From a virus: a stretch of DNA of 40,947 nucleotides. The number at the start of each line of letters is the position of its first letter. Within the stretch, counting starts at the first letter, position 1. The stretch lies in IMG/VR virus record IMGVR_UViG_3300027668_000039, positions 1 to 40,947 of that record; one strand, given 5' to 3'. Below the pieces are notes generated by a model. That model had not been told where the DNA came from and did not search any database. It was given only the letters and a program-made list of their open reading frames with translations. Both the position numbers and the translations under genes were made by a program. Below are positions 12,510 to 39,892 of the stretch, piece by piece.

Positions 12510-13595
12510 ATGGGAAAACGATTAAGACTTTCGGATGAAGAAGTTGATTTTATATATCAACACCGAGCAGGAGATTTAAAAAATCTCAACTATAACCTTT
12601 CGCACAATTCAGCTTTAGATGAGCATTTACTTGAAAGAGGTATTGAAAAGAAAGATGTTATTTCAGTTAAACATTGGCAGAATATGGGTGGTGATTTACG
12701 ATTTTCAGTAGTTACTAAGCCTAATGTAGTTGATGAGAAAAATGTATTTAGTAATGTTTTAAAGCTTATTGAAGATAATGCTCCTGAATACCCTAAAATC
12801 ATACATAAAGAAGGACAACACTTATTGGTTATCAACCCAGCAGATGTTCATATTGGAAAGTATGCTAGTGCAAGAGAAACTGGGGAGGAATACAATATGG
12901 AAATAGCCATACAAAGAGTTTTAATGGGTGTTAGTGGCCTTATTCAGAAAGCTAAAGGTTTTGGTATAGATAGAGTTCTTTTTTGCATAGGGAACGATAT
13001 TCTACATACAGATAATGTTATGTCAAGTACAACAAAAGGAACATATCAAGATACAGATGGAAAATGGTGGGAACATTATGAGGTTGCATTACAAGTTTAT
13101 GTTCATTGTGTGGAAATGTTAAGAGAAATAGCTCCAGTAGATTGTGTACACTCTATGTCTAATCACGATTATCAAAGTGGATTTCATTTAGCACATGCTT
13201 TAAAGAGCTGGTTTAGAAAGGCAGATGATGTTTCTGTAGATTGTGGGGTTTCTAATCGTAAATATTATAAATATGGTAGTAATTTAATAGGACTTGAGCA
13301 TGGGGATGGAGCTAAGATGGATAAACTTCCTCTTTTAATGGCATCAGAAAAACCACAAGACTGGGCTTCTACTACTCATAGATATTGGTATTTACATCAT
13401 CTTCACCACAAGATCAAGCATAAATGGTTAGATGCTAAAGACTTTATAGGGGTTACAGTAGAATATATGAGAAGTCCATCTGCTAGTGATTCCTGGCATG
13501 CAGGAAAAGGATTTTGTGGTGTTCCAAAAGCAGTAGAAGGCTTTTTACATGATAAAGAAAGTGGTCAAGTAGCAAGATTTGTACATTATTTTTAA
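12510..13595 (+). CDS. Calcineurin-like metallophosphoesterase
   Basis: 361 aa. The metal-site motifs of the family are in order: DVHIGK (112-117), GNDILHTDN (161-169), SNHD (217-220), EHGD (263-266) and a final HHLHH (296-300). These bind two metal ions and hydrolyse phosphoesters; relatives include SbcD/Mre11-like nucleases and small phage phosphatases. The N-terminal ~100 residues are unassigned and start with a possible helix-turn-helix (LSDEEVDFIYQHRAG). It is the last gene before a terminator and the accessory region. The substrate is unknown; nucleic acid is likely. Confidence 0.8.
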   Translation: MGKRLRLSDEEVDFIYQHRAGDLKNLNYNLSHNSALDEHLLERGIEKKDVISVKHWQNMGGDLRFSVVTKPNVVDEKNVFSNVLKLIEDNAPEYPKIIHKEGQHLLVINPADVHIGKYASARETGEEYNMEIAIQRVLMGVSGLIQKAKGFGIDRVLFCIGNDILHTDNVMSSTTKGTYQDTDGKWWEHYEVALQVYVHCVEMLREIAPVDCVHSMSNHDYQSGFHLAHALKSWFRKADDVSVDCGVSNRKYYKYGSNLIGLEHGDGAKMDKLPLLMASEKPQDWASTTHRYWYLHHLHHKIKHKWLDAKDFIGVTVEYMRSPSASDSWHAGKGFCGVPKAVEGFLHDKESGQVARFVHYF

Positions 13596-13634
13596 ATAAA
13601 TACAATAATTTCTTTTTTATTTAAAAAAATTGTT

Positions 13635-13700
13635 GTTATATTGTAATAGTTTTGTTTTAGTTGTAAAAAAGAAGAGGGGGGTTCATGATACCCTCCTTTT
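13635..13700 (+). ncRNA. Possible short RNA: promoter-like boxes plus hairpin terminator
   Basis: GTTATATTGTA (13635-13645) overlaps TAGTTTTG (13647-13654), an exact TAnnTTTG box. A start about 7 bases on would give a transcript of about 45 nt ending in the hairpin at 13672-13700. No open frame fits. The boxes lie upstream of the terminator, so they cannot serve the next gene without read-through. It could be a small RNA or a chance arrangement. Confidence 0.3.
13672..13700 (+). terminator. Terminator after the phosphoesterase gene
   Basis: The arm AAGAGGGGGG (13672-13681), 9-base loop TTCATGATA and arm CCCTCCTTTT (13691-13700) form a 10-bp stem with two G-U pairs and a U-rich 3' side. It ends the 4002-13595 unit and marks the left border of the accessory region. 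Confidence 0.7.
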
Positions 13701-13719
13701 CTGTTTCTGTATTTCTCGT

Positions 13720-13846
13720 AATTGGTAACAACTTTTCTCTTAATATTTTTTTATACTGAATTGGTAATAGCTTTGCTCTTAATTGGTAACAGCTTTGCTC
13801 TTAATTGGTAAGACATTTGCTCTTAATTGGTAACAGATTTGCTCTT
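13720..13846 (+). repeat. Five 22-bp repeats, core AATTGGTA
   Basis: Copies start at 13720, 13759, 13781, 13803 and 13825; the last four are in perfect 22-bp tandem. Each begins AATTGGTAA and ends TTTGCTCTT (TTTTCTCTT in the first). An A/T stretch (13851-13870) follows. The 22-bp period places the cores on one face of the helix, as in plasmid iterons or cooperative operators. This 13596-14026 stretch holds no gene I can support. Confidence 0.9.
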
Positions 13847-13905
13847 AACCTTTTTTTTTAAAAAATTTTTCATCTGATTTCTTCCTGGTGCAGCATGTTG
13901 CATGT

Positions 13906-13935
13906 AATTTCAGCTAATTTCAGCTAATTTCATGC
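13906..13935 (+). repeat. Three 10-bp repeats AATTTCAGCT
   Basis: AATTTCAGCT is at 13906-13915 and 13916-13925; a third, degenerate copy AATTTCATGCT starts at 13926. They lie between the 22-bp repeats and the leader of gene 14027 and might form an operator. Confidence 0.75.
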
Positions 13936-13994
13936 TATTATATTTTATTGCATATAATTTGTTTATATCAAATATTAATGCTTATATGTAATTA

Positions 13995-14026
13995 CAACAA
14001 AACTAAATTAATCAAAAAAAATTATT
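13995..14026 (+). promoter_or_regulatory. Shared leader of accessory unit 1
   Basis: CAACAAAACTAAATTAAT (13995-14012), then an A-run and the ATG at 14027. Unit 2 has CAACAAAACTTTATTAAT at 15747-15764, differing at two positions, so this is a conserved 5' leader or promoter-proximal element. Confidence 0.5.
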
Positions 14027-14512
14027 ATGAAAAAGTATGAAGTTAAAGTAACAAATGATTATGATTCAGGATTCTCCTGGAATATGTATTTAGATTATGT
14101 AAGAGATTTAGCAAGTGAAATAGATATTGCAGTACATAATAGGAATAGGAGTATGAGCAACATATTGCCTAGTAAAAAAATAGATACTGATGGTTATCAT
14201 AAGTCATGTATAGTAGGATGTACTGGGTATAGTCAATCAGAATGGGATGATTATACTATATATTATAATGAAGAAAGTAAGGAATTGGAATTATTAAAAG
14301 AACAAATATCTATGGCTTTTACACATAAACACGATTATTGTATAGAAGCAATAGAAACTTTGGAATCAGGTCATTCTATGGTTATAGATTATTGTATCGT
14401 AAGTATTGACTGGATAGAGTTCCCTGATGAAAATGATATTAAGGATGTAGTAAGAGAATCAGGCATACAAATTGTAGATAATGATTTATTAACTTGGAAT
14501 TTTAATATATGA
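14027..14512 (+). CDS. Accessory unit 1, gene 1, unknown
   Basis: 161 aa, acidic and aromatic-rich (MKKYEVKVTNDYDSGFSWNM), predicted soluble with no signal or membrane segment. No family is recognised. It starts a five- or six-gene unit of small proteins that ends at the terminator 15514-15540, and its TGA overlaps the next ATG (ATGA). As a moron-like gene it may alter host behaviour, but nothing in the sequence shows this directly. Confidence 0.7.
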   Translation: MKKYEVKVTNDYDSGFSWNMYLDYVRDLASEIDIAVHNRNRSMSNILPSKKIDTDGYHKSCIVGCTGYSQSEWDDYTIYYNEESKELELLKEQISMAFTHKHDYCIEAIETLESGHSMVIDYCIVSIDWIEFPDENDIKDVVRESGIQIVDNDLLTWNFNI

Positions 14513-14751
14513 AAAATATAATAGATAAGGTAGATGATGGATTCAATTTCTTTAATTCAGGAATACTAGAAGAATTAACTACTGATAAAAAATATTATGT
14601 TGAGGTTTTTATGGAATACATAGAATACCTGGAAAAGAGGAAGAAAGACTTAGTTAAAAGGAATGAGATAGAATGCGTAGAATGTAAAACGATCAATTCA
14701 CATGATACTGATGAGTTCGGCTTCTGTAAAGAATGTTTGGCACACTTATAA
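14509..14751 (+). CDS. Small protein with C-terminal zinc knuckle
   Basis: 80 aa. A helical, charged first part (EYLEKRKKDLVKRN) is followed by CVECKTINSHDTDEFGFCKECL, two CxxC pairs 15 residues apart that should bind zinc. It overlaps the upstream gene by four bases. Such small zinc-ribbon proteins usually contact nucleic acid or a protein partner; the target is unknown. Confidence 0.65.
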   Translation: MKNIIDKVDDGFNFFNSGILEELTTDKKYYVEVFMEYIEYLEKRKKDLVKRNEIECVECKTINSHDTDEFGFCKECLAHL

Positions 14752-14772
14752 AATTAATTAAACTTAAACAAA

Positions 14773-15009
14773 ATGAAATACAAATTATGGGATGTACAAA
14801 GGAATGAATATAAGCACTATGATTATAATGAAATAATATATGATGATTTAAAAGAAGTAGAGGAATCGTTATGGAATTTTCACTCAGTAGATTATGGTGG
14901 ATTGGAAGAAAAAGAATTTAACGAATTAACATTTAATGGTATGTTAATGTTATTTGATTGGGAAGTACATAATGCTAAAACAAATAAACTTAAAATAATA
15001 AACAAATGA
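14773..15009 (+). CDS. Accessory unit 1, small unknown protein
   Basis: 78 aa, beginning MKYKLWDVQRNEYKHYDYNE, rich in Tyr, Asp and Glu, soluble. No family is recognised. It starts after a short A-rich leader (TTAAACAAA), and its TGA overlaps the start of the lipoprotein gene at 15006. Confidence 0.6.
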   Translation: MKYKLWDVQRNEYKHYDYNEIIYDDLKEVEESLWNFHSVDYGGLEEKEFNELTFNGMLMLFDWEVHNAKTNKLKIINK

Positions 15010-15122
15010 AGAAATTAATAATGATAATGCTAGCAATAACAATACTAAGTTCTTGTGGGCTAAGATTTGGAGATTATAATGCTTATAAAAAACACAATGC
15101 TAGAAAGACTTGTAACCAATAA
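15006..15122 (+). CDS. 38-aa lipoprotein
   Basis: ATG 15006 overlaps the previous stop (ATGA); TAA at 15120-15122. The product starts with MKKLIMIMLAITILSSCG, a lipoprotein signal with lipobox LSSC and lipidated Cys17. The mature peptide has only about 22 residues and is basic. Small phage lipoproteins made early can block superinfection at the cell envelope, which is one possible role; another is a small lysis helper. Confidence 0.65.
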   Translation: MKKLIMIMLAITILSSCGLRFGDYNAYKKHNARKTCNQ

Positions 15123-15131
15123 TAAATAACC

Positions 15132-15419
15132 ATGGTATATTGTAGTAAAACTAAAGAAGAAATGTTTGATGGATGGTATAACGATAATACTGGAGAATAT
15201 TTCAAATATGAAAAAGATTATCTGAATCATATTGATAAAATTATAGAAGAAACTTTAATATGGCATAATGTTGATTTGAAAGACAAGGATACAATGAAGA
15301 AAGTGTTTCTTAAAGAAGAGCAAGTAGAATTACCTATAAGTGTAGATGATAGGCTAGAGTATGCTTATAACCACTTAGGATGTTACTGGTCAGAATGGCT
15401 AGAAGATGAAGAAGAATAA
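15132..15419 (+). CDS. Accessory unit 1, acidic protein, unknown
   Basis: 95 aa with strongly acidic ends (SEWLEDEEE). The MVYCSKTKEEMFDGWYNDNTGEYF opening recalls small phage proteins with a short beta-hairpin zinc-like head, but only one Cys is present there, so a metal site is doubtful. Function unknown. It lies 9 bases after the lipoprotein gene. Confidence 0.6.
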   Translation: MVYCSKTKEEMFDGWYNDNTGEYFKYEKDYLNHIDKIIEETLIWHNVDLKDKDTMKKVFLKEEQVELPISVDDRLEYAYNHLGCYWSEWLEDEEE

Positions 15420-15442
15420 ATAACTAAAAACTAATAAACTAT

Positions 15443-15505
15443 ATGATAACATACTTAATATTTGTAATAATTTTAGCAATATGGGAATTTATAAAACAAA
15501 ATTAA
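15443..15505 (+). CDS. 20-aa membrane microprotein
   Basis: ATG 15443 to TAA 15503-15505 encodes MITYLIFVIILAIWEFIKQN, a single transmembrane helix with a short charged end. It follows an A-rich leader and lies 8 bases before a terminator, which suits the last gene of the unit. A longer frame from 15481 to 15681 in another phase runs through the terminator and is less likely. Confidence 0.5.
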   Translation: MITYLIFVIILAIWEFIKQN

Positions 15506-15513
15506 CCAGAAGA

Positions 15514-15540
15514 GTAACCAGAAATGGTTACTTTTTTTTT
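15514..15540 (+). terminator. Intrinsic terminator of accessory unit 1
   Basis: Perfect stem GTAACCA/TGGTTAC, loop GAAA, then nine T. A textbook terminator. Confidence 0.9.
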
Positions 15541-15545
15541 GGCCT

Positions 15546-15600
15546 AATTGGTACACTTATAAATTATTTACAATGGGTAATTGGTAGCTTCTCTTCTCTT
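15546..15600 (+). repeat. AATTGGTA pair 33 bp apart
   Basis: AATTGGTA cores start at 15546 and 15579. The second lies in AATTGGTAGCTTCTCTTCTCTT-like sequence with the same CTCTT end as the 13720 repeats. The 33-bp spacing is three times 11, and the cluster begins six bases after the terminator. The rest of 15601-15739 shows only A/T-rich sequence. Confidence 0.75.
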
Positions 15601-15739
15601 AATAAAGATAGGCCTATTAGAATTAGTAGATTTGATTTGGCACTTACTACTAGGTTTAAATTTTATCTTATTAACATATAACAAAAAACTTTTTAATAAA
15701 TAATACTTTTTTATAGTTATTTTTAAAAAACTTTATATA

Positions 15740-15780
15740 TTGCGACCAACAAAACTTTATTAATTAAATTAAAAAAAATC
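15740..15780 (+). promoter_or_regulatory. Promoter/leader of accessory unit 2
   Basis: TTGCGACCAACAAAA (15740-15754) is identical to 17253-17267. Just upstream is TATATTGC, near the TAnnTTTG box. An A-run and TC precede the ATG at 15781. Confidence 0.6.
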
Positions 15781-16695
15781 ATGAGAACAGTATTAAAAAA
15801 CAATTCAGAAGCAATACATTACTTTGCTAACAATGTTCAGGATAACGGATGTAATCAGACCAGGAGTATATTTTTTGAAGGTAACAAAATTTATTCCTAT
15901 GGTTATCATTATTTGCTAGGCCTAAGATTAAAAAATGCACTTATAATTAATGATAATGGTTATTCTGTATCAACTAGTAAGCATATATCAGAGTTAAGGA
16001 ATGCTTCAACACATTTAACTACATTCAATTTATCATCTATAAGTATTGATTCAGTATTCAAAAATATTGTTATCAATAATCAAAAAATCAAAAAGGCCTG
16101 GAAGCATAAATTATTTTATGCAAATCAAATTATAAGGCAATTTAATGAGTATCAAAAATTCCTGGAATTTTGTAAGAACAATAAAAAAACAAAGGATCAG
16201 ATTAAAAAATATTATTCAGGAGTAAAAGCAACAAAAAAATGTAGCATGTATAATGATATTAAAAAAATTCATGATAACATAAAGATAGTTTATAATGATT
16301 TATTGGTTCAGGATAATTTGAGAACAAAAAGAATTGCAGCCGACCAATTAGTTAAGAATGAAAAAAATATTGCAATATTCAGAAACGAACCTAAAAAAAG
16401 GCCTTTTATAAGATTAACACATTCAATTTTAAGAATTACTGAAAATAAAGAATTTATACAAAGTGAAAAAGGAGTGCAATTACCTATTAAATTATGTTTA
16501 GACTTTTTAAACTTATTATATAAAGGCGAAAATTTAATTGGCCAAAAATTAGGCCATTACACTATAAATTCATGGGATGGTAATTTACTAAAAATTAATT
16601 GTCATACTTTTGAAAATGCTGAACTTAAAAACATAATAAAATTAATCAACTATCAAAAAACACTAGAAACTTTAACTAATAACTTAAAAAAATAA
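15781..16695 (+). CDS. Conserved phage protein of unknown function (IYSYGYHY motif)
   Basis: 304 aa. The N-terminal part AIHYFANNVQDNG...SIFFEGNKIYSYGYHYLLG...NGYSVSTSKHISELRNASTHL resembles a protein seen in many unrelated phages, with the pattern FFEG..IYSYG.H and ...S.STSKH.S. Its function is not established. The central part is lysine-rich and helical (QIKKYYSGVKATKKCSMYND), which might bind nucleic acid. It is the largest accessory gene and leads a two-gene unit. Expression should start from the conserved leader at 15740. Confidence 0.6.
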   Translation: MRTVLKNNSEAIHYFANNVQDNGCNQTRSIFFEGNKIYSYGYHYLLGLRLKNALIINDNGYSVSTSKHISELRNASTHLTTFNLSSISIDSVFKNIVINNQKIKKAWKHKLFYANQIIRQFNEYQKFLEFCKNNKKTKDQIKKYYSGVKATKKCSMYNDIKKIHDNIKIVYNDLLVQDNLRTKRIAADQLVKNEKNIAIFRNEPKKRPFIRLTHSILRITENKEFIQSEKGVQLPIKLCLDFLNLLYKGENLIGQKLGHYTINSWDGNLLKINCHTFENAELKNIIKLINYQKTLETLTNNLKK

Positions 16696-16697
16696 TC

Positions 16698-16997
16698 ATG
16701 AAAAATCAAATTAAAAAATTAGAAATAGATATATTCTTTAATCGTAATGCTACAAGCCCTCTAATTCCTAACAAAATTGCTCAAATTAAAGATTATTTGA
16801 GTATCAATGCTAAACTATACTACAATAGTGTAAAATTTGTAGGAGGTTCTAATGTAGAATTACAAAATCAAAGTGTAGCAAATTTTGTAATCTTTACGGA
16901 TAACCAGGAACAAATCAAAAAGCAGTTTTTAGATATATTCAAAAGTTACCCATTGTATATAAGTTTTGACAATAAAATCCCTGAACTTATAAAATAA
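16698..16997 (+). CDS. Accessory unit 2, second gene, unknown
   Basis: 99 aa beginning MKNQIKKLEIDIFFNRNATS, two bases after the previous stop, with an AAAAAATAATC leader. The pattern alternates strand and helix, giving a small soluble alpha/beta protein. No family is recognised. A hairpin terminator follows 23 bases after the stop. Being paired with 15781, it may work with that protein. Confidence 0.6.
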   Translation: MKNQIKKLEIDIFFNRNATSPLIPNKIAQIKDYLSINAKLYYNSVKFVGGSNVELQNQSVANFVIFTDNQEQIKKQFLDIFKSYPLYISFDNKIPELIK

Positions 16998-17020
16998 AAA
17001 TAAAAAATAAAATTTAATTT

Positions 17021-17046
17021 AGGCCTATTAATTTAGGCCTTTTTTT
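17021..17046 (+). terminator. Terminator of accessory unit 2
   Basis: Stem AGGCCTA/TAGGCCT with loop TTAATT, then six or more T. The loop is the same as in the terminator at 18022. Confidence 0.85.
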
Positions 17047-17050
17047 ATGT

Positions 17051-17094
17051 AATTGGTAGCTAATTGGTAGCTAATTGGTAGCTAATTGGTAGCA
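17051..17094 (+). repeat. Four 11-bp tandem repeats AATTGGTAGCT
   Basis: Copies at 17051, 17062, 17073 and 17084 (last ends GCA). The period is one helical turn, half that of the 13720 array. It starts five bases after the terminator. 17095-17252 holds only A-rich sequence with no gene I can support. Confidence 0.9.
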
Positions 17095-17252
17095 ACTTTG
17101 TAAAAGGTTATAGGTCAAAAAATTTTTAGCCTAAAAAAAGTGTTGCTAGAGTAAAAATGAAAAAATATAATTAGATCGTGGGAATTATTGAAAAAATAAC
17201 CAGGAAAAAAAAAAGCAAAAATAAAATAGGATATTAAAAAAAACTAAATATC

Positions 17253-17300
17253 TTGCGACCAACAAAAACAAACTAATTTTATAAACCTAAAAAAAAAATC
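17253..17300 (+). promoter_or_regulatory. Promoter/leader of accessory unit 3
   Basis: TTGCGACCAACAAAA (17253-17267), preceded by TATCTTGC, then an A-rich leader ending AAAAAAATC before the ATG at 17301. Same element as at 15740. Confidence 0.6.
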
Positions 17301-17399
17301 ATGCAAAAATCAAAAGAAACATTAACAGAAAAAATCTTTAACATTTTCTATCTATTAACACTACCAGCAGCAATAGTAGTATATTTTATAAACCTTTAA
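17301..17399 (+). CDS. 32-aa membrane microprotein
   Basis: ATG 17301 to TAA 17397-17399. The product MQKSKETLTEKIFNIFYLLT continues into LPAAIVVYFINL, giving one transmembrane helix after a short charged head. It has the same AAAAAATC-ATG start context as its neighbours and begins unit 3. Possible roles include a membrane-acting anti-host or exclusion peptide; this is not shown by the sequence. Confidence 0.5.
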   Translation: MQKSKETLTEKIFNIFYLLTLPAAIVVYFINL

Positions 17400-17409
17400 A
17401 AAAAAAATC

Positions 17410-17637
17410 ATGAAAAAATCAAAATCACCTGGAATCAGAATTACTAGAGCAGCAAAAGAATTAAAAGCTAAATCTAATGGCTACGAAATAGGAACTTTTA
17501 TACTAGAGCAAATCATTACAAATGGAATGCAGCAACTAGAAAAAGACTTAAAGGAGGGCAACCTGGATAGGTCAATTATTGCTCCTAGTATGTACCAGGA
17601 AACACTAAACATTTTAACTAAACACATAAACCAATAA
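17410..17637 (+). CDS. Small basic helical protein, possible DNA binder
   Basis: 75 aa, starting MKKSKSPGIRITRAAKELKA with a basic head and three or four predicted helices (NGYEIGTFILEQIITNGMQQ, SMYQETLNILTKHI). The ITRAAKELKAKSNGYEIGTFI stretch could form a helix-turn-helix, which would make it a candidate for binding the AATTGGTA repeats nearby, but no family match is clear. It lies 4 bases before the next gene. Confidence 0.55.
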   Translation: MKKSKSPGIRITRAAKELKAKSNGYEIGTFILEQIITNGMQQLEKDLKEGNLDRSIIAPSMYQETLNILTKHINQ

Positions 17638-17641
17638 AACC

Positions 17642-17989
17642 ATGAAAAACTCAATAAGAACGGAACTAAAGCAGTATATACTGGAAGGCATGCAGGACTT
17701 AAACCAGGATAACCTAACCAGTAAACCAGGCCGACTAGATGCAAACGAATTGCACCAGGAACTTTTCAACGTAGATTACTATATAATCGGCTATTATAAG
17801 GCCGAGCAATGGCTAAAGCAGCACCAGGTGAGCACCTTTGACGCAATAAGCCAGGTTCAGGAGTGGGAACTGGATAATTTCGGCCAGGCTAAAAATTATG
17901 ATAATGCTGAATCCCTGGTGAACATGTTGGTTTATATCTACGGCGAACAATTAATAAACGAATGTTTCCAGGAACTAGAACTATTCTAG
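17642..17989 (+). CDS. Conserved phage protein (LHQELFNVDYYIIG motif), unknown
   Basis: 115 aa. The run ELHQELFNVDYYIIGYYKAE, then FDAISQVQEWELDNFGQAKN and LVNMLVYIYGEQLINE, matches a small helical protein found in many tailed phages, usually near the FFEG..IYSYG-type gene seen here at 15781. Function is not established. The gene is clearly richer in GC than its neighbours and packed with CCAGG and GGCC, suggesting a different origin or selection. A terminator follows 33 bases after the stop. Confidence 0.7.
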   Translation: MKNSIRTELKQYILEGMQDLNQDNLTSKPGRLDANELHQELFNVDYYIIGYYKAEQWLKQHQVSTFDAISQVQEWELDNFGQAKNYDNAESLVNMLVYIYGEQLINECFQELELF

Positions 17990-18021
17990 TAGCAGCAGCA
18001 GCACCATCAGCAGCACCTATT

Positions 18022-18050
18022 AAGGACTATTAATTTAGTCCTTTTTTTTT
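18022..18050 (+). terminator. Terminator of accessory unit 3
   Basis: Stem AAGGACTA/TAGTCCTT, loop TTAATT, then a run of T. A CAG/CAC-rich microsatellite-like run (17990-18017) lies between the stop codon and the stem. Confidence 0.9.
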
Positions 18051-18138
18051 GGCTTAATTTGAGGCCTGGAGGGCTTAACGGGATATTGTCAAGGGCTTAA
18101 CATAGGCTGGTATATTATAAGGCCTTAAAAGGGCTTAA
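18051..18138 (+). repeat. GGCTTAA repeats after the terminator
   Basis: GGCTTAA starts at 18051, 18072, 18094 and 18132, with a GGCCTTAA variant at 18121. The first three are 21-22 bp apart. The place, straight after a terminator, is like that of the AATTGGTA clusters. Confidence 0.65.
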
Positions 18139-18154
18139 ATTGTCTTATGTTATT

Positions 18155-18270
18155 GCTCCAGGTATAGCTCCAGGTATAGCTCCAGGAGTGCTCCAGGTGT
18201 TGCTCCTGGTGTTCTATTGGTTCGGCCTGGTGTTGGCCTGGTGTTGGTGTTATTGTTGCTCCTGGTGTTA
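18155..18270 (+). repeat. 12-bp GCTCC(A/T)GGT array
   Basis: Units GCTCCAGGTATA (18155, 18167), an 11-bp GCTCCAGGAGT (18179), GCTCCAGGTGTT (18190) and GCTCCTGGTGTT (18202), then degenerate GGCCTGGTGTT copies to about 18270. In frame it would read (APGI/V)n. The one-base shorter unit shifts the frame, and neither frame has an ATG in a good context. Confidence 0.75.
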
Positions 18271-18546
18271 CTTATACATAAACTGTTTTACACTCATCAA
18301 GGCCACGAACAGCACCAAAAATTGAGCAGTAAACCACGAACAGAAACAAAAAAAGAAGCAAAAAAATAATTAGAGCAGTAAAAAATTGCAGCAATTCGGC
18401 CAGGAATCAAGGCCAAAAATCAAAAAAATAAATTATTAAAAATCATGAATTTACGTAATTCTGAAGCCCAATTTGAGTAGTCAAATATTCACACTAGATT
18501 TTCGGATTTTCAACTTTTATTACACCAACTGCACAATATATATTTT
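18271..18546. other. Gene-poor stretch before the terminase operon
   Basis: I see no gene I can support here. A frame through 18190-18369 would encode a leucine/valine-rich membrane stretch and a Lys-rich end, but it lacks a start. An 11-codon frame at 18445-18480 (MNLRNSEAQFE) has the usual AAAAATC-ATG context and is the only other candidate. Confidence 0.5.
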
Positions 18547-38979: not shown

Positions 38980-39384
38980 TTATTTATTAATTAATTTAGT
39001 TGTGTTCTTTTTTAAAATCTTTATTGATTTTTGCATTACATCAATCTGCCTTTCCATGTGATCTATTTTTGCTGCTCTATATCCAGTTGCGTACTCATCT
39101 TGTACAGCCAAGTACATATCTTTATATTTTGGATAATATTTTAAGTTCCATTTATGATCCTTTGTGTATTTTAAAACTGAAGCATGATGCCTTCCTACTA
39201 ATACTCCTGCCCTAGTTGCAGAGCATCCCTCTTCTCTTAACATTGAGCCTAAAATACTTCTAGCTAGTGCTATATTAGTATGCCTATCTTTACTCCTTAT
39301 AACTTGTCTTGATATACCTGAAACCAATTCTATTATTTTAGTTAAAGCTTCTTCATTACTACTCATATTTATTTCTTTCATCAC
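38980..39384 (-). CDS. Stand-alone DnaA domain IV-like DNA-binding protein
   Basis: 134 aa. ALARSILGSMLREEGCSATR and AGVLVGRHHASVLKYTKDH (residues about 45-83) resemble the helix-turn-helix of DnaA domain IV, including the GR.H..VL.Y signature that reads DnaA boxes. No ATPase part is present. The C-terminus is a basic coiled coil (QIDVMQKSIKILKKNTTKL). It lies in the replication block, six bases from the SSB gene. The start may be Met7 (39366), which gives a smaller overlap. Confidence 0.65.
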   Translation of the reverse strand: MMKEINMSSNEEALTKIIELVSGISRQVIRSKDRHTNIALARSILGSMLREEGCSATRAGVLVGRHHASVLKYTKDHKWNLKYYPKYKDMYLAVQDEYATGYRAAKIDHMERQIDVMQKSIKILKKNTTKLINK

Positions 39385-39892
39385 TTAATTTTCTTGATTG
39401 TGTTAATATTTTTTTTGCTCTTTGTGTATCTAAATTTTCTGATACATAATACAATGAAGCTATAAACCTTTTCTTTTCAGAACTATAATGTTTAAATCTA
39501 TCTACTTCATTGTCTAAAACTCTTGCTATCTCTAAACCTACTTCTTTGTAACATAGCTGTAAATACTTAGTTCTTAATGTTGATGAATGTATTTTTTCAC
39601 CTAACAAACCTAAAGAATCCCATTTATTTTCTTTAAAATAAAATATTGGTATATCACTAAACATTTCTTTTGGAATGGCAGATAAGAAATTTATAAAATA
39701 ATCTATTGGTATATATCCATCCTTATTTCTAGCTATTATTATATTTCTATATTTATGTATATAACTATATATTTTTCTAGCTTTTTGATCATTATTCAAA
39801 TACTCCTCTTTTAAACATCTCTTGATACTGGTCTTTAGGATCTCTAGGCCAGTCGTTCTCCCTAAGATCCTTGATGATTTTTTCTGCTTCAT
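39359..39892 (-). CDS. Replication-block protein, unknown
   Basis: Up to 177 aa. Basic first part (IKRCLKEEYLNNDQKARKIY), then helical (LQLCYKEVGLEIARVLDNEV). No family is recognised. The ATG at 39892 would overlap 39792-40028 by 101 bases. A TTG at 39799, preceded by AGAGGAG, would remove the overlap and give 146 aa, so the first 31 residues may not be real. It overlaps the DnaA-like gene at its other end. Confidence 0.55.
   Translation of the reverse strand: MKQKKSSRILGRTTGLEILKTSIKRCLKEEYLNNDQKARKIYSYIHKYRNIIIARNKDGYIPIDYFINFLSAIPKEMFSDIPIFYFKENKWDSLGLLGEKIHSSTLRTKYLQLCYKEVGLEIARVLDNEVDRFKHYSSEKKRFIASLYYVSENLDTQRAKKILTQSRKLSDERNKYE

What the first reader, a model, noticed from the sequence alone, without database searches (positions are those of the whole stretch)
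13596..18051. Array of three moron-like cassettes, each set between AATTGGTA repeats and a terminator
The order repeats three times: AATTGGTA cluster (13720, 15546, 17051), shared CAACAAAA-type leader (13995, 15740, 17253), small unknown genes, hairpin terminator (15514, 17021, 18022). Each cluster starts 5-20 bp after a terminator. Repeat periods are 22, 33 and 11 bp, all multiples of 11. Independent morons do not normally share both a leader and a phased repeat. The repeats may be recombination borders that let cassettes be gained or lost, or operators that keep the array under one regulator.
Basis: partly seen in the sequence, partly recalled or inferred. Interest (0 to 1): 0.75.

Follow-up and report, generated by a model that had tools for sequence, protein, structure and literature searches.

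The report
Phage gene-unit control sites, self-specific
In a group of marine viruses of Flavobacteria-like bacteria, every block of accessory genes is preceded by a cluster of short one-way DNA sites that lies right after the previous stop signal and about 130 bases before the block's promoter; each virus lineage uses its own version of the site, which appears to change together with a small DnaA-like DNA-binding protein the virus encodes.

Summary
Eleven AATTGGTA copies lie in three clusters (13720-13847, 15546-15601, 17051-17102), all on the + strand, each 5-18 bp after a terminator and 132-140 bp before a promoter -7 box. The "CAACAAAA leader" is that promoter's start region and 5' UTR. The 11-bp phasing does not hold: the first spacing is 39, and relatives use 28-56.

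Relatives show more. The repeat is one lineage's version of a roughly 25-bp bipartite, one-way element at the same borders: AATTGGTA-, TACGCT-, AACGCT/CACTAC-, GGCCTGA- or TAGTACACT-type cores. One phage repeats its core at all its borders. Phages 96% identical in the neighbouring gene can differ in core, and at unit 2 the core changed in place while the TATTTACAA tail stayed. This fits sites read by a fast-evolving trans-acting protein, not recombination borders.

Best candidate reader: the DnaA-domain-IV-like protein at 38980-39381(-) with its neighbour 39359-39892. This pair groups by site class, whereas the neighbouring gene rejects that grouping (p-AU 4e-56).

Favoured mechanism: upstream regulatory sites working like Caulobacter GafY. 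Main rival: stoperator-like roadblocks. Site binding, activation and timing are inferred. Cassette exchange is real, but nothing shows the repeats cause it.

The parts
13636..13643 (+). TTATATTG promoter -7 box after the exonuclease gene, start of a short predicted transcript ending at the first terminator
   Evidence: invariant in all 15 phages aligned; transcript inferred
13670..13702 (+). terminator 1
   Evidence: 13-pair stem with T-rich tail
13720..13847 (+). site cluster 1: five AATTGGTAnnnnnTTTnCTCTTA units, spacings 39,22,22,22
   Evidence: conserved in L093
13958..13988 (+). unit 1 promoter: TTTG -33 box and TTATATG -7 box
   Evidence: sequence; site-to-box distance 132
14027..15419 (+). 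unit 1 small genes (14027-14512, 14509-14751, 14773-15009, 15132-15419), functions unknown
   Evidence: gene content differs between relatives
15511..15534 (+). terminator 2
15546..15601 (+). site cluster 2: AATTGGTA...TTATTTACAAT and AATTGGTA...CTCTTA, spacing 33
15736..15742 (+). unit 2 promoter -7 box TATATTG, followed by CGACCAACAAAA
15781..16997 (+). unit 2 genes: 15781-16695 (PHROG 7247, unknown) and 16698-16997
17021..17040 (+). terminator 3
17051..17102 (+). site cluster 3: four 11-bp AATTGGTAGCT-type copies; the TTTA/CTTA tail is absent here, but present on the last copy in L093
17249..17255 (+). unit 3 promoter -7 box TATCTTG
17301..17989 (+). unit 3 genes: 17301-17399, 17410-17637, 17642-17989 (PHROG 10208, unknown)
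18022..18043 (+). terminator 4, not followed by a site cluster
38980..39381 (-). DnaA-domain-IV-like DNA-binding protein, candidate reader of the sites
   Evidence: Pfam Bac_DnaA_C 1.2e-5 for the window protein (below the curated cut-off) and matched by all 23 homologues, best 1.2e-15; model pLDDT 90.8, best PDB matches DnaA DBD-DNA complexes 3pvp and 1j1v; co-segregates with site class
39359..39892 (-). overlapping upstream neighbour of the DnaA-like gene, 177 aa, unknown fold, candidate partner
   Evidence: found directly upstream of the DnaA-like gene in most homologous loci; no fold match

Best explanation
The repeats are one-way, lineage-specific binding sites for a phage-encoded regulator that control the accessory gene units lying between the exonuclease gene and terS. 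Each unit is: terminator of the previous unit, 1-5 sites, about 130 bp of presumably untranscribed DNA, a Bacteroidetes-type promoter, small genes, terminator. The most likely reader is the DnaA-domain-IV-like protein 38980-39381(-), made from the oppositely oriented replication-gene block together with its overlapping neighbour 39359-39892. Most likely it acts from a distance on the downstream promoter, as the DnaA-like activator GafY does from about -120 in the Caulobacter gene transfer agent, so that all units switch together. SHOWN here: the sites, their orientation, borders, distance to the promoter, class differences between close relatives, in-place core change, the DnaA-domain-IV fold, and co-segregation of site class with the gene pair. 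INFERRED: that this protein binds the sites, the sign of regulation (activation more likely than repression), the timing, and the role of the partner.
For: Sites recur at the same borders in about 14 related phages with class-specific cores. Class cores are concentrated in the exonuclease-terS zone and point with the late genes: G001 GTACGCT 5 of 5, window AATTGGTA 11 of 14, G005 GGCCTGA 5 of 6, G003 TAGTACACT 5 of 5; in records with at least two GTACGCT-type matches all point one way, with only a few control hits. At unit 2 the core differs (GGTACAC versus GTACGCT) while the TATTTACAA tail and flanks align. Distance from last site to -7 box: median 131, range 83-192, 23 units; 132, 132, 140 in the window. 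The exonuclease tree rejects the AATTGGTA class as one clade (p-AU 4e-56) and puts the window with TACGCT phages at 99/99. The gene-pair tree puts all three testable AATTGGTA phages in one branch (92/94), both TACGCT phages in another (100/100), and rejects window+G006 (p-AU 2e-36). DnaA-IV fold. Precedent: GafY binds -123 to -113 and activates through a degenerate -35 with IHF (PMC11150451); small DnaA-like genes sit beside gafA homologues (PMC9638019).
Against: No binding or expression data. Co-segregation rests on 8 phages with both parts; large tail-gene modules also co-segregate with window/G002, and G015's DnaA-like protein is only 56% identical to the window's. The unit 1 promoter already has a good -33 TTTG box and might not need an activator. 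Sites also occur where no promoter follows at 130 bp: between stop and start codon and inside the exonuclease gene in L105, flanking that gene in L092, and overlapping a terminator in L092; this fits a roadblock better. The partner protein shows no sigma-like fold, unlike GafZ. No IHF site was identified.
Confidence: 0.45

Rival explanations
1. Stoperator-like polar roadblocks: the regulator bound to the one-way sites stops RNA polymerase that reads through terminators or through late genes, silencing or insulating the accessory units.
For: Strict orientation with transcription; position right after, before or overlapping terminators; sites within or between late genes in L105 and flanking the exonuclease gene in L092, including one that goes with a 12-nt gain inside a coding region; phage-specific cores as in cluster A mycobacteriophages (PMC6550527); orientation-dependent block by a monomeric two-domain repressor on an asymmetric site (PMC9283540).
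Against: Does not explain the conserved ~130 bp of non-coding DNA between sites and promoter; sites are few and mostly at unit borders; no integrase or known repressor family was seen among the proteins scanned, so no obvious lysogeny to maintain.
Confidence: 0.25
2. The bipartite element is itself an activator-dependent promoter (like T4 middle promoters): core as a -30 box, TTTAYA-type tail as the -10 region, giving a second, distal promoter for each unit.
For: Near-fixed ~25-bp geometry of core and tail; one orientation; placed after terminators and upstream of genes.
Against: Tandem half-copies at 7-11 bp spacing without a tail (cluster 3) are odd for promoters; in L105 the start codon follows the tail directly, leaving no room for a leader; a separate -7 box sits 45-52 nt before each unit in the window.
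Confidence: 0.15
3. Recombination borders: the repeats are homology or target sites through which cassettes are gained and lost.
For: Gene content of the units is modular and varies between constant borders.
Against: Phages sharing a cassette carry different cores at its border, core class differs between phages near-identical in the neighbouring gene, one strict orientation, roughly constant distance to the promoter, no recombinase of that kind seen.
Confidence: 0.07
4. Iterons of a replication origin bound by the DnaA-like initiator.
For: [quoted passage not shown] direct repeats.
Against: Two to three separate clusters per phage, each tied to a promoter; sites inside a coding gene in L105; cumulative GC skew shows no turn at 13-18 kb, only near 1 and 34 kb.
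Confidence: 0.05

Closest known systems
GafY/GafZ (Caulobacter GTA) and GafA (Rhodobacter GTA)
   Same: DnaA-like DNA-binding domain encoded by a small gene beside a partner gene; binding element about 100 bp upstream of a -10 box; several phage-type gene units under one regulator (PMC11150451, PMC9638019).
   Different: Partner here has no sigma-like fold; gene order is reversed (partner first); sites are tandem arrays with lineage-specific cores; phage of marine Bacteroidetes rather than GTA; antitermination and IHF not tested.
Stoperators of cluster A mycobacteriophages
   Same: Short asymmetric sites, mostly in one orientation with transcription, in intergenic spaces, phage-specific consensus (PMC6550527, PMC9283540).
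   Different: Those are 13-mers, more than twenty per genome, read by an unrelated HTH repressor of temperate phages; here ~25-bp bipartite sites, mostly 3-11 per genome, tied to a promoter distance, no sign of lysogeny.
DnaA domain IV and DnaA boxes
   Same: The candidate reader has this fold (3pvp, 1j1v).
   Different: No ATPase domain or domain I; Asp of the GRDH recognition motif is His in the window protein; sites are not TTATNCACA.
Flavobacterium phage 11b
   Same: Closest isolated phage by large terminase (52% over 96%).
   Different: Different gene order; the DnaA-like and partner proteins find no match in the phage collection.

Membership tests
GafY/GafZ-type activator system | DnaA-like DNA-binding domain in the regulator | tested here: met
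   Pfam Bac_DnaA_C in all 23 homologues; fold matches 3pvp/1j1v, TM (target) 0.83-0.84
GafY/GafZ-type activator system | adjacent partner with sigma-factor-like HTH (GafZ) | tested here: not met
   partner model (pLDDT 91) has no significant fold match
[quoted passage not shown]
   sites lie a median 131 bp upstream of -7 boxes, but binding is not shown
GafY/GafZ-type activator system | activation and antitermination | not testable with these tools
   needs expression experiments
Stoperators | asymmetric sites in one orientation with transcription, phage-specific consensus | tested here: met
Stoperators | cluster A-type immunity repressor encoded by the phage | tested here: inconclusive
   no repressor or integrase family match among the proteins scanned; not every ORF was scanned
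Stoperators | binding stops transcription elongation | not testable with these tools
   needs reporter assay
Replication-origin iterons | one repeat array at the origin, with skew change | tested here: not met
   three arrays tied to promoters; no skew turn at 13-18 kb
Recombination-border repeats | same repeat sequence shared by phages that exchange cassettes | tested here: not met
   shared C3/C1 cassette has different cores in different phages

The most novel reading that the evidence does not exclude
A widespread marine phage group uses a stand-alone DnaA-DNA-binding-domain protein, with a partner of unknown fold, as a private master switch: one-way tandem sites beside the terminators govern every accessory unit, and the site sequence at all borders is rewritten in step with the protein when the regulator gene is exchanged between otherwise close phages, like an immunity-type specificity system in apparently lytic phages.
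Probability: 0.4. Interest if true: 0.75.

Novelty: new variant of a known kind. Interest (0 to 1): 0.6.

Why it matters
It would make the accessory zone of a widespread but uncultured marine phage group readable: the sites mark gene units and let new units be found by sequence alone. The natural series of close relatives with different site classes is a ready-made experiment on how a regulator and several of its sites change specificity together, and it asks why a phage would need a private control code (for example against cross-regulation during co-infection). It also would extend DnaA-like domains as phage-type transcription regulators from gene transfer agents of Alphaproteobacteria to phages of Bacteroidetes.

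Tried and rejected
DNA-level search of the locus in isolated phages: no match. Host search by terminase in 84,980 genomes: none. Phage 11b as a comparator: different layout. More distant relatives (exonuclease about 70% identical) lack the sites right after that gene. A loose AATTGGTA pattern in 2.9 million viral contigs gave mostly single chance hits; the stricter one hit three contigs of this group and two single-copy contigs; the TACGCT unit-2 form hit only 7 contigs, all of this group. Mini-ORF reading of AAATG sites (ATG TAC GCT ...): rejected because AAAAGTACGCT and AATTGGTA forms have no ATG. Sites as host DnaA boxes: sequence does not fit TTATNCACA. The 17410 protein as binder: too narrow in distribution. 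Residue-level match of the DnaA recognition helix to site class: no simple rule. Prediction that phages L200/L201/L203 (same regulator clade as the window) carry AATTGGTA-class sites could not be checked because none of these contigs was found to cover both parts.
Full report
WHAT WAS CHECKED. AATTGGTA occurs 14 times against 3.2 expected, and no shuffle reached that. The 11-bp phasing is not general: the first spacing is 39, and relatives have 7, 28, 32, 36, 37, 40 and 56. The leader is the -7 box of a Bacteroidetes-type promoter plus the 5' UTR (TTATATG 13982, TATATTG 15736, TATCTTG 17249); unit 1 also has a TTTG -33 box 20 bp upstream.

WHAT THE WINDOW IS. It is a 40,947-bp viral contig with no match by DNA among isolated phages at this locus. 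It has a ClpP-type head protease, portal, tail fibre, metallophosphatase/exonuclease, terminase, primase-helicase, replication initiator and RusA. The large terminase is 52% identical to Flavobacterium phage 11b. Its kin are many metagenomic contigs, several of 37-42 kb. The accessory zone lies between the exonuclease gene (12510-13595) and terS (18608).

THE ELEMENT IS GENERAL, ITS CORE IS NOT. Right after the terminators at the same borders, relatives carry a bipartite element of about 25 bp on the late-gene strand. Examples: AATTGGTAACAGATTTGCTCTTA (window, L093), CAGTTGGTAGCAAATTTCCTCTTTA (L099), AAATGTACGCTATTGATCCTCTTTATA and AAAAGTACGCTTGATTTTCTATTTACAAG (L089), AATTGTACGGTACATTTCCCTTTTATTTGCG (L092), AAATGAACGCTAATACCTCTCTTTAG (L100), AAATGGCCTGAGAAAATCGCATTTAGGCG (L098), TTAGTACACTAGAGG (L094/L095). 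In each genome the core is concentrated in the zone and points one way. Exact searches of 2.9 million viral contigs place the specific forms almost only in this group.

THE CORE CHANGES IN PLACE. At unit 2 the alignment from terminator to start codon shows AATTGGTACACTTATAAATTATTTACAAT opposite AAAAGTACGCTTGATTTTCTATTTACAAG: the tail and the flanks are kept and the core is exchanged. The downstream cassette (C3, C1) is shared across classes. Gene content of the units otherwise varies strongly. So cassettes do come and go, but the repeats follow the phage, not the cassette.

GEOMETRY. In 23 units the last site ends a median 131 bp (83-192) before the -7 box, and the box lies a median 44 nt before the first ATG. 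Keeping about 130 bp of non-coding DNA there in compact genomes suggests that it matters. Exceptions exist: in L105 one site bridges a stop and a start codon, and one lies inside the exonuclease gene with a 12-nt gain; in L092 sites flank that gene and overlap a terminator.

WHO READS IT. Comparing the window with G002 (same class) and G006 (TACGCT class), several neighbouring early genes are as close or closer to G006, yet the overlapping pair 38980/39359 is 89% identical to G002 and 45-55% to G006. The 38980 product is a DnaA-domain-IV protein by profile (all 23 homologues), and its confident model matches DnaA DNA-binding domains on DNA (3pvp, 1j1v). Its partner has no known fold and sits directly upstream of it in most loci examined. 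The exonuclease tree rejects the AATTGGTA phages as a clade (p-AU 4e-56) and needs 8 class changes among 16 phages. In the pair tree the AATTGGTA phages share a branch (92/94, with three phages of unknown class), the two TACGCT phages pair at 100/100, and window+G006 is rejected. A strict clade of the three AATTGGTA phages alone is neither shown nor rejected (p-AU 0.125). Caveats: only eight phages could be used, and tail modules also co-segregate.

MECHANISM. Closest precedent for such a protein: GafY binds at -123 to -113, upstream of IHF, and contacts sigma at a degenerate -35 (PMC11150451), and small DnaA-like genes accompany gafA homologues (PMC9638019). I therefore favour distal regulation of the unit promoters, activation more likely than repression. 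The one-way orientation, closeness to terminators and in-gene sites equally recall stoperators, whose repressor works only in one orientation (PMC9283540, PMC6550527); DnaA bound to its box is also known to block transcription in one orientation (own knowledge, not checked here). E. coli DnaA prefers pairs of closely spaced sites (PMC11317965, title), which fits tandem sites. An origin of replication is unlikely (no skew turn there).

VERDICT. A real, group-wide, lineage-specific element that is best read as regulatory; strong as a comparative finding, open as to the sign and mode of action.

Noticed in passing
window 13636-13702: A TTATATTG promoter box invariant in 15 phages, followed by GTTTTGTT and a terminator directly after the exonuclease gene: a predicted short RNA of about 55-130 nt with a variable middle.
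   Followed up: partly
window 18050-18440: G-rich, CTCCAGG/CCTGG-rich repeats between the last terminator and terS; 23 of 31 relatives' contigs tallied start 1.6-2.1 kb before terL, and ~41-kb contigs such as G002 begin and end here: possible physical genome end (cos or pac) or an assembly break in repeats.
   Followed up: partly
window 15500-18440: GGCC (19 versus about 1 expected from the rest of the window) and CCWGG are strongly concentrated here, with CCWGG peaking at 17500-18440 where GC rises to 0.4; the cause is unknown.
   Followed up: partly
window 15781-16695: The first ~80 residues match PHROG 7247 and proteins of Achromobacter, Pseudomonas, Gordonia and Limnohabitans phages; the rest is specific to this group.
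   Followed up: no
window 17642-17989: PHROG 10208 protein also found in Lactococcus 949-like phages, 36-44% identical.
   Followed up: no
window about 15660-15710: A second conserved block (TTATTAACATATAACAAAAAACTTTTTAATAAA) upstream of the unit 2 -7 box, kept across site classes; possible bending-protein site.
   Followed up: no
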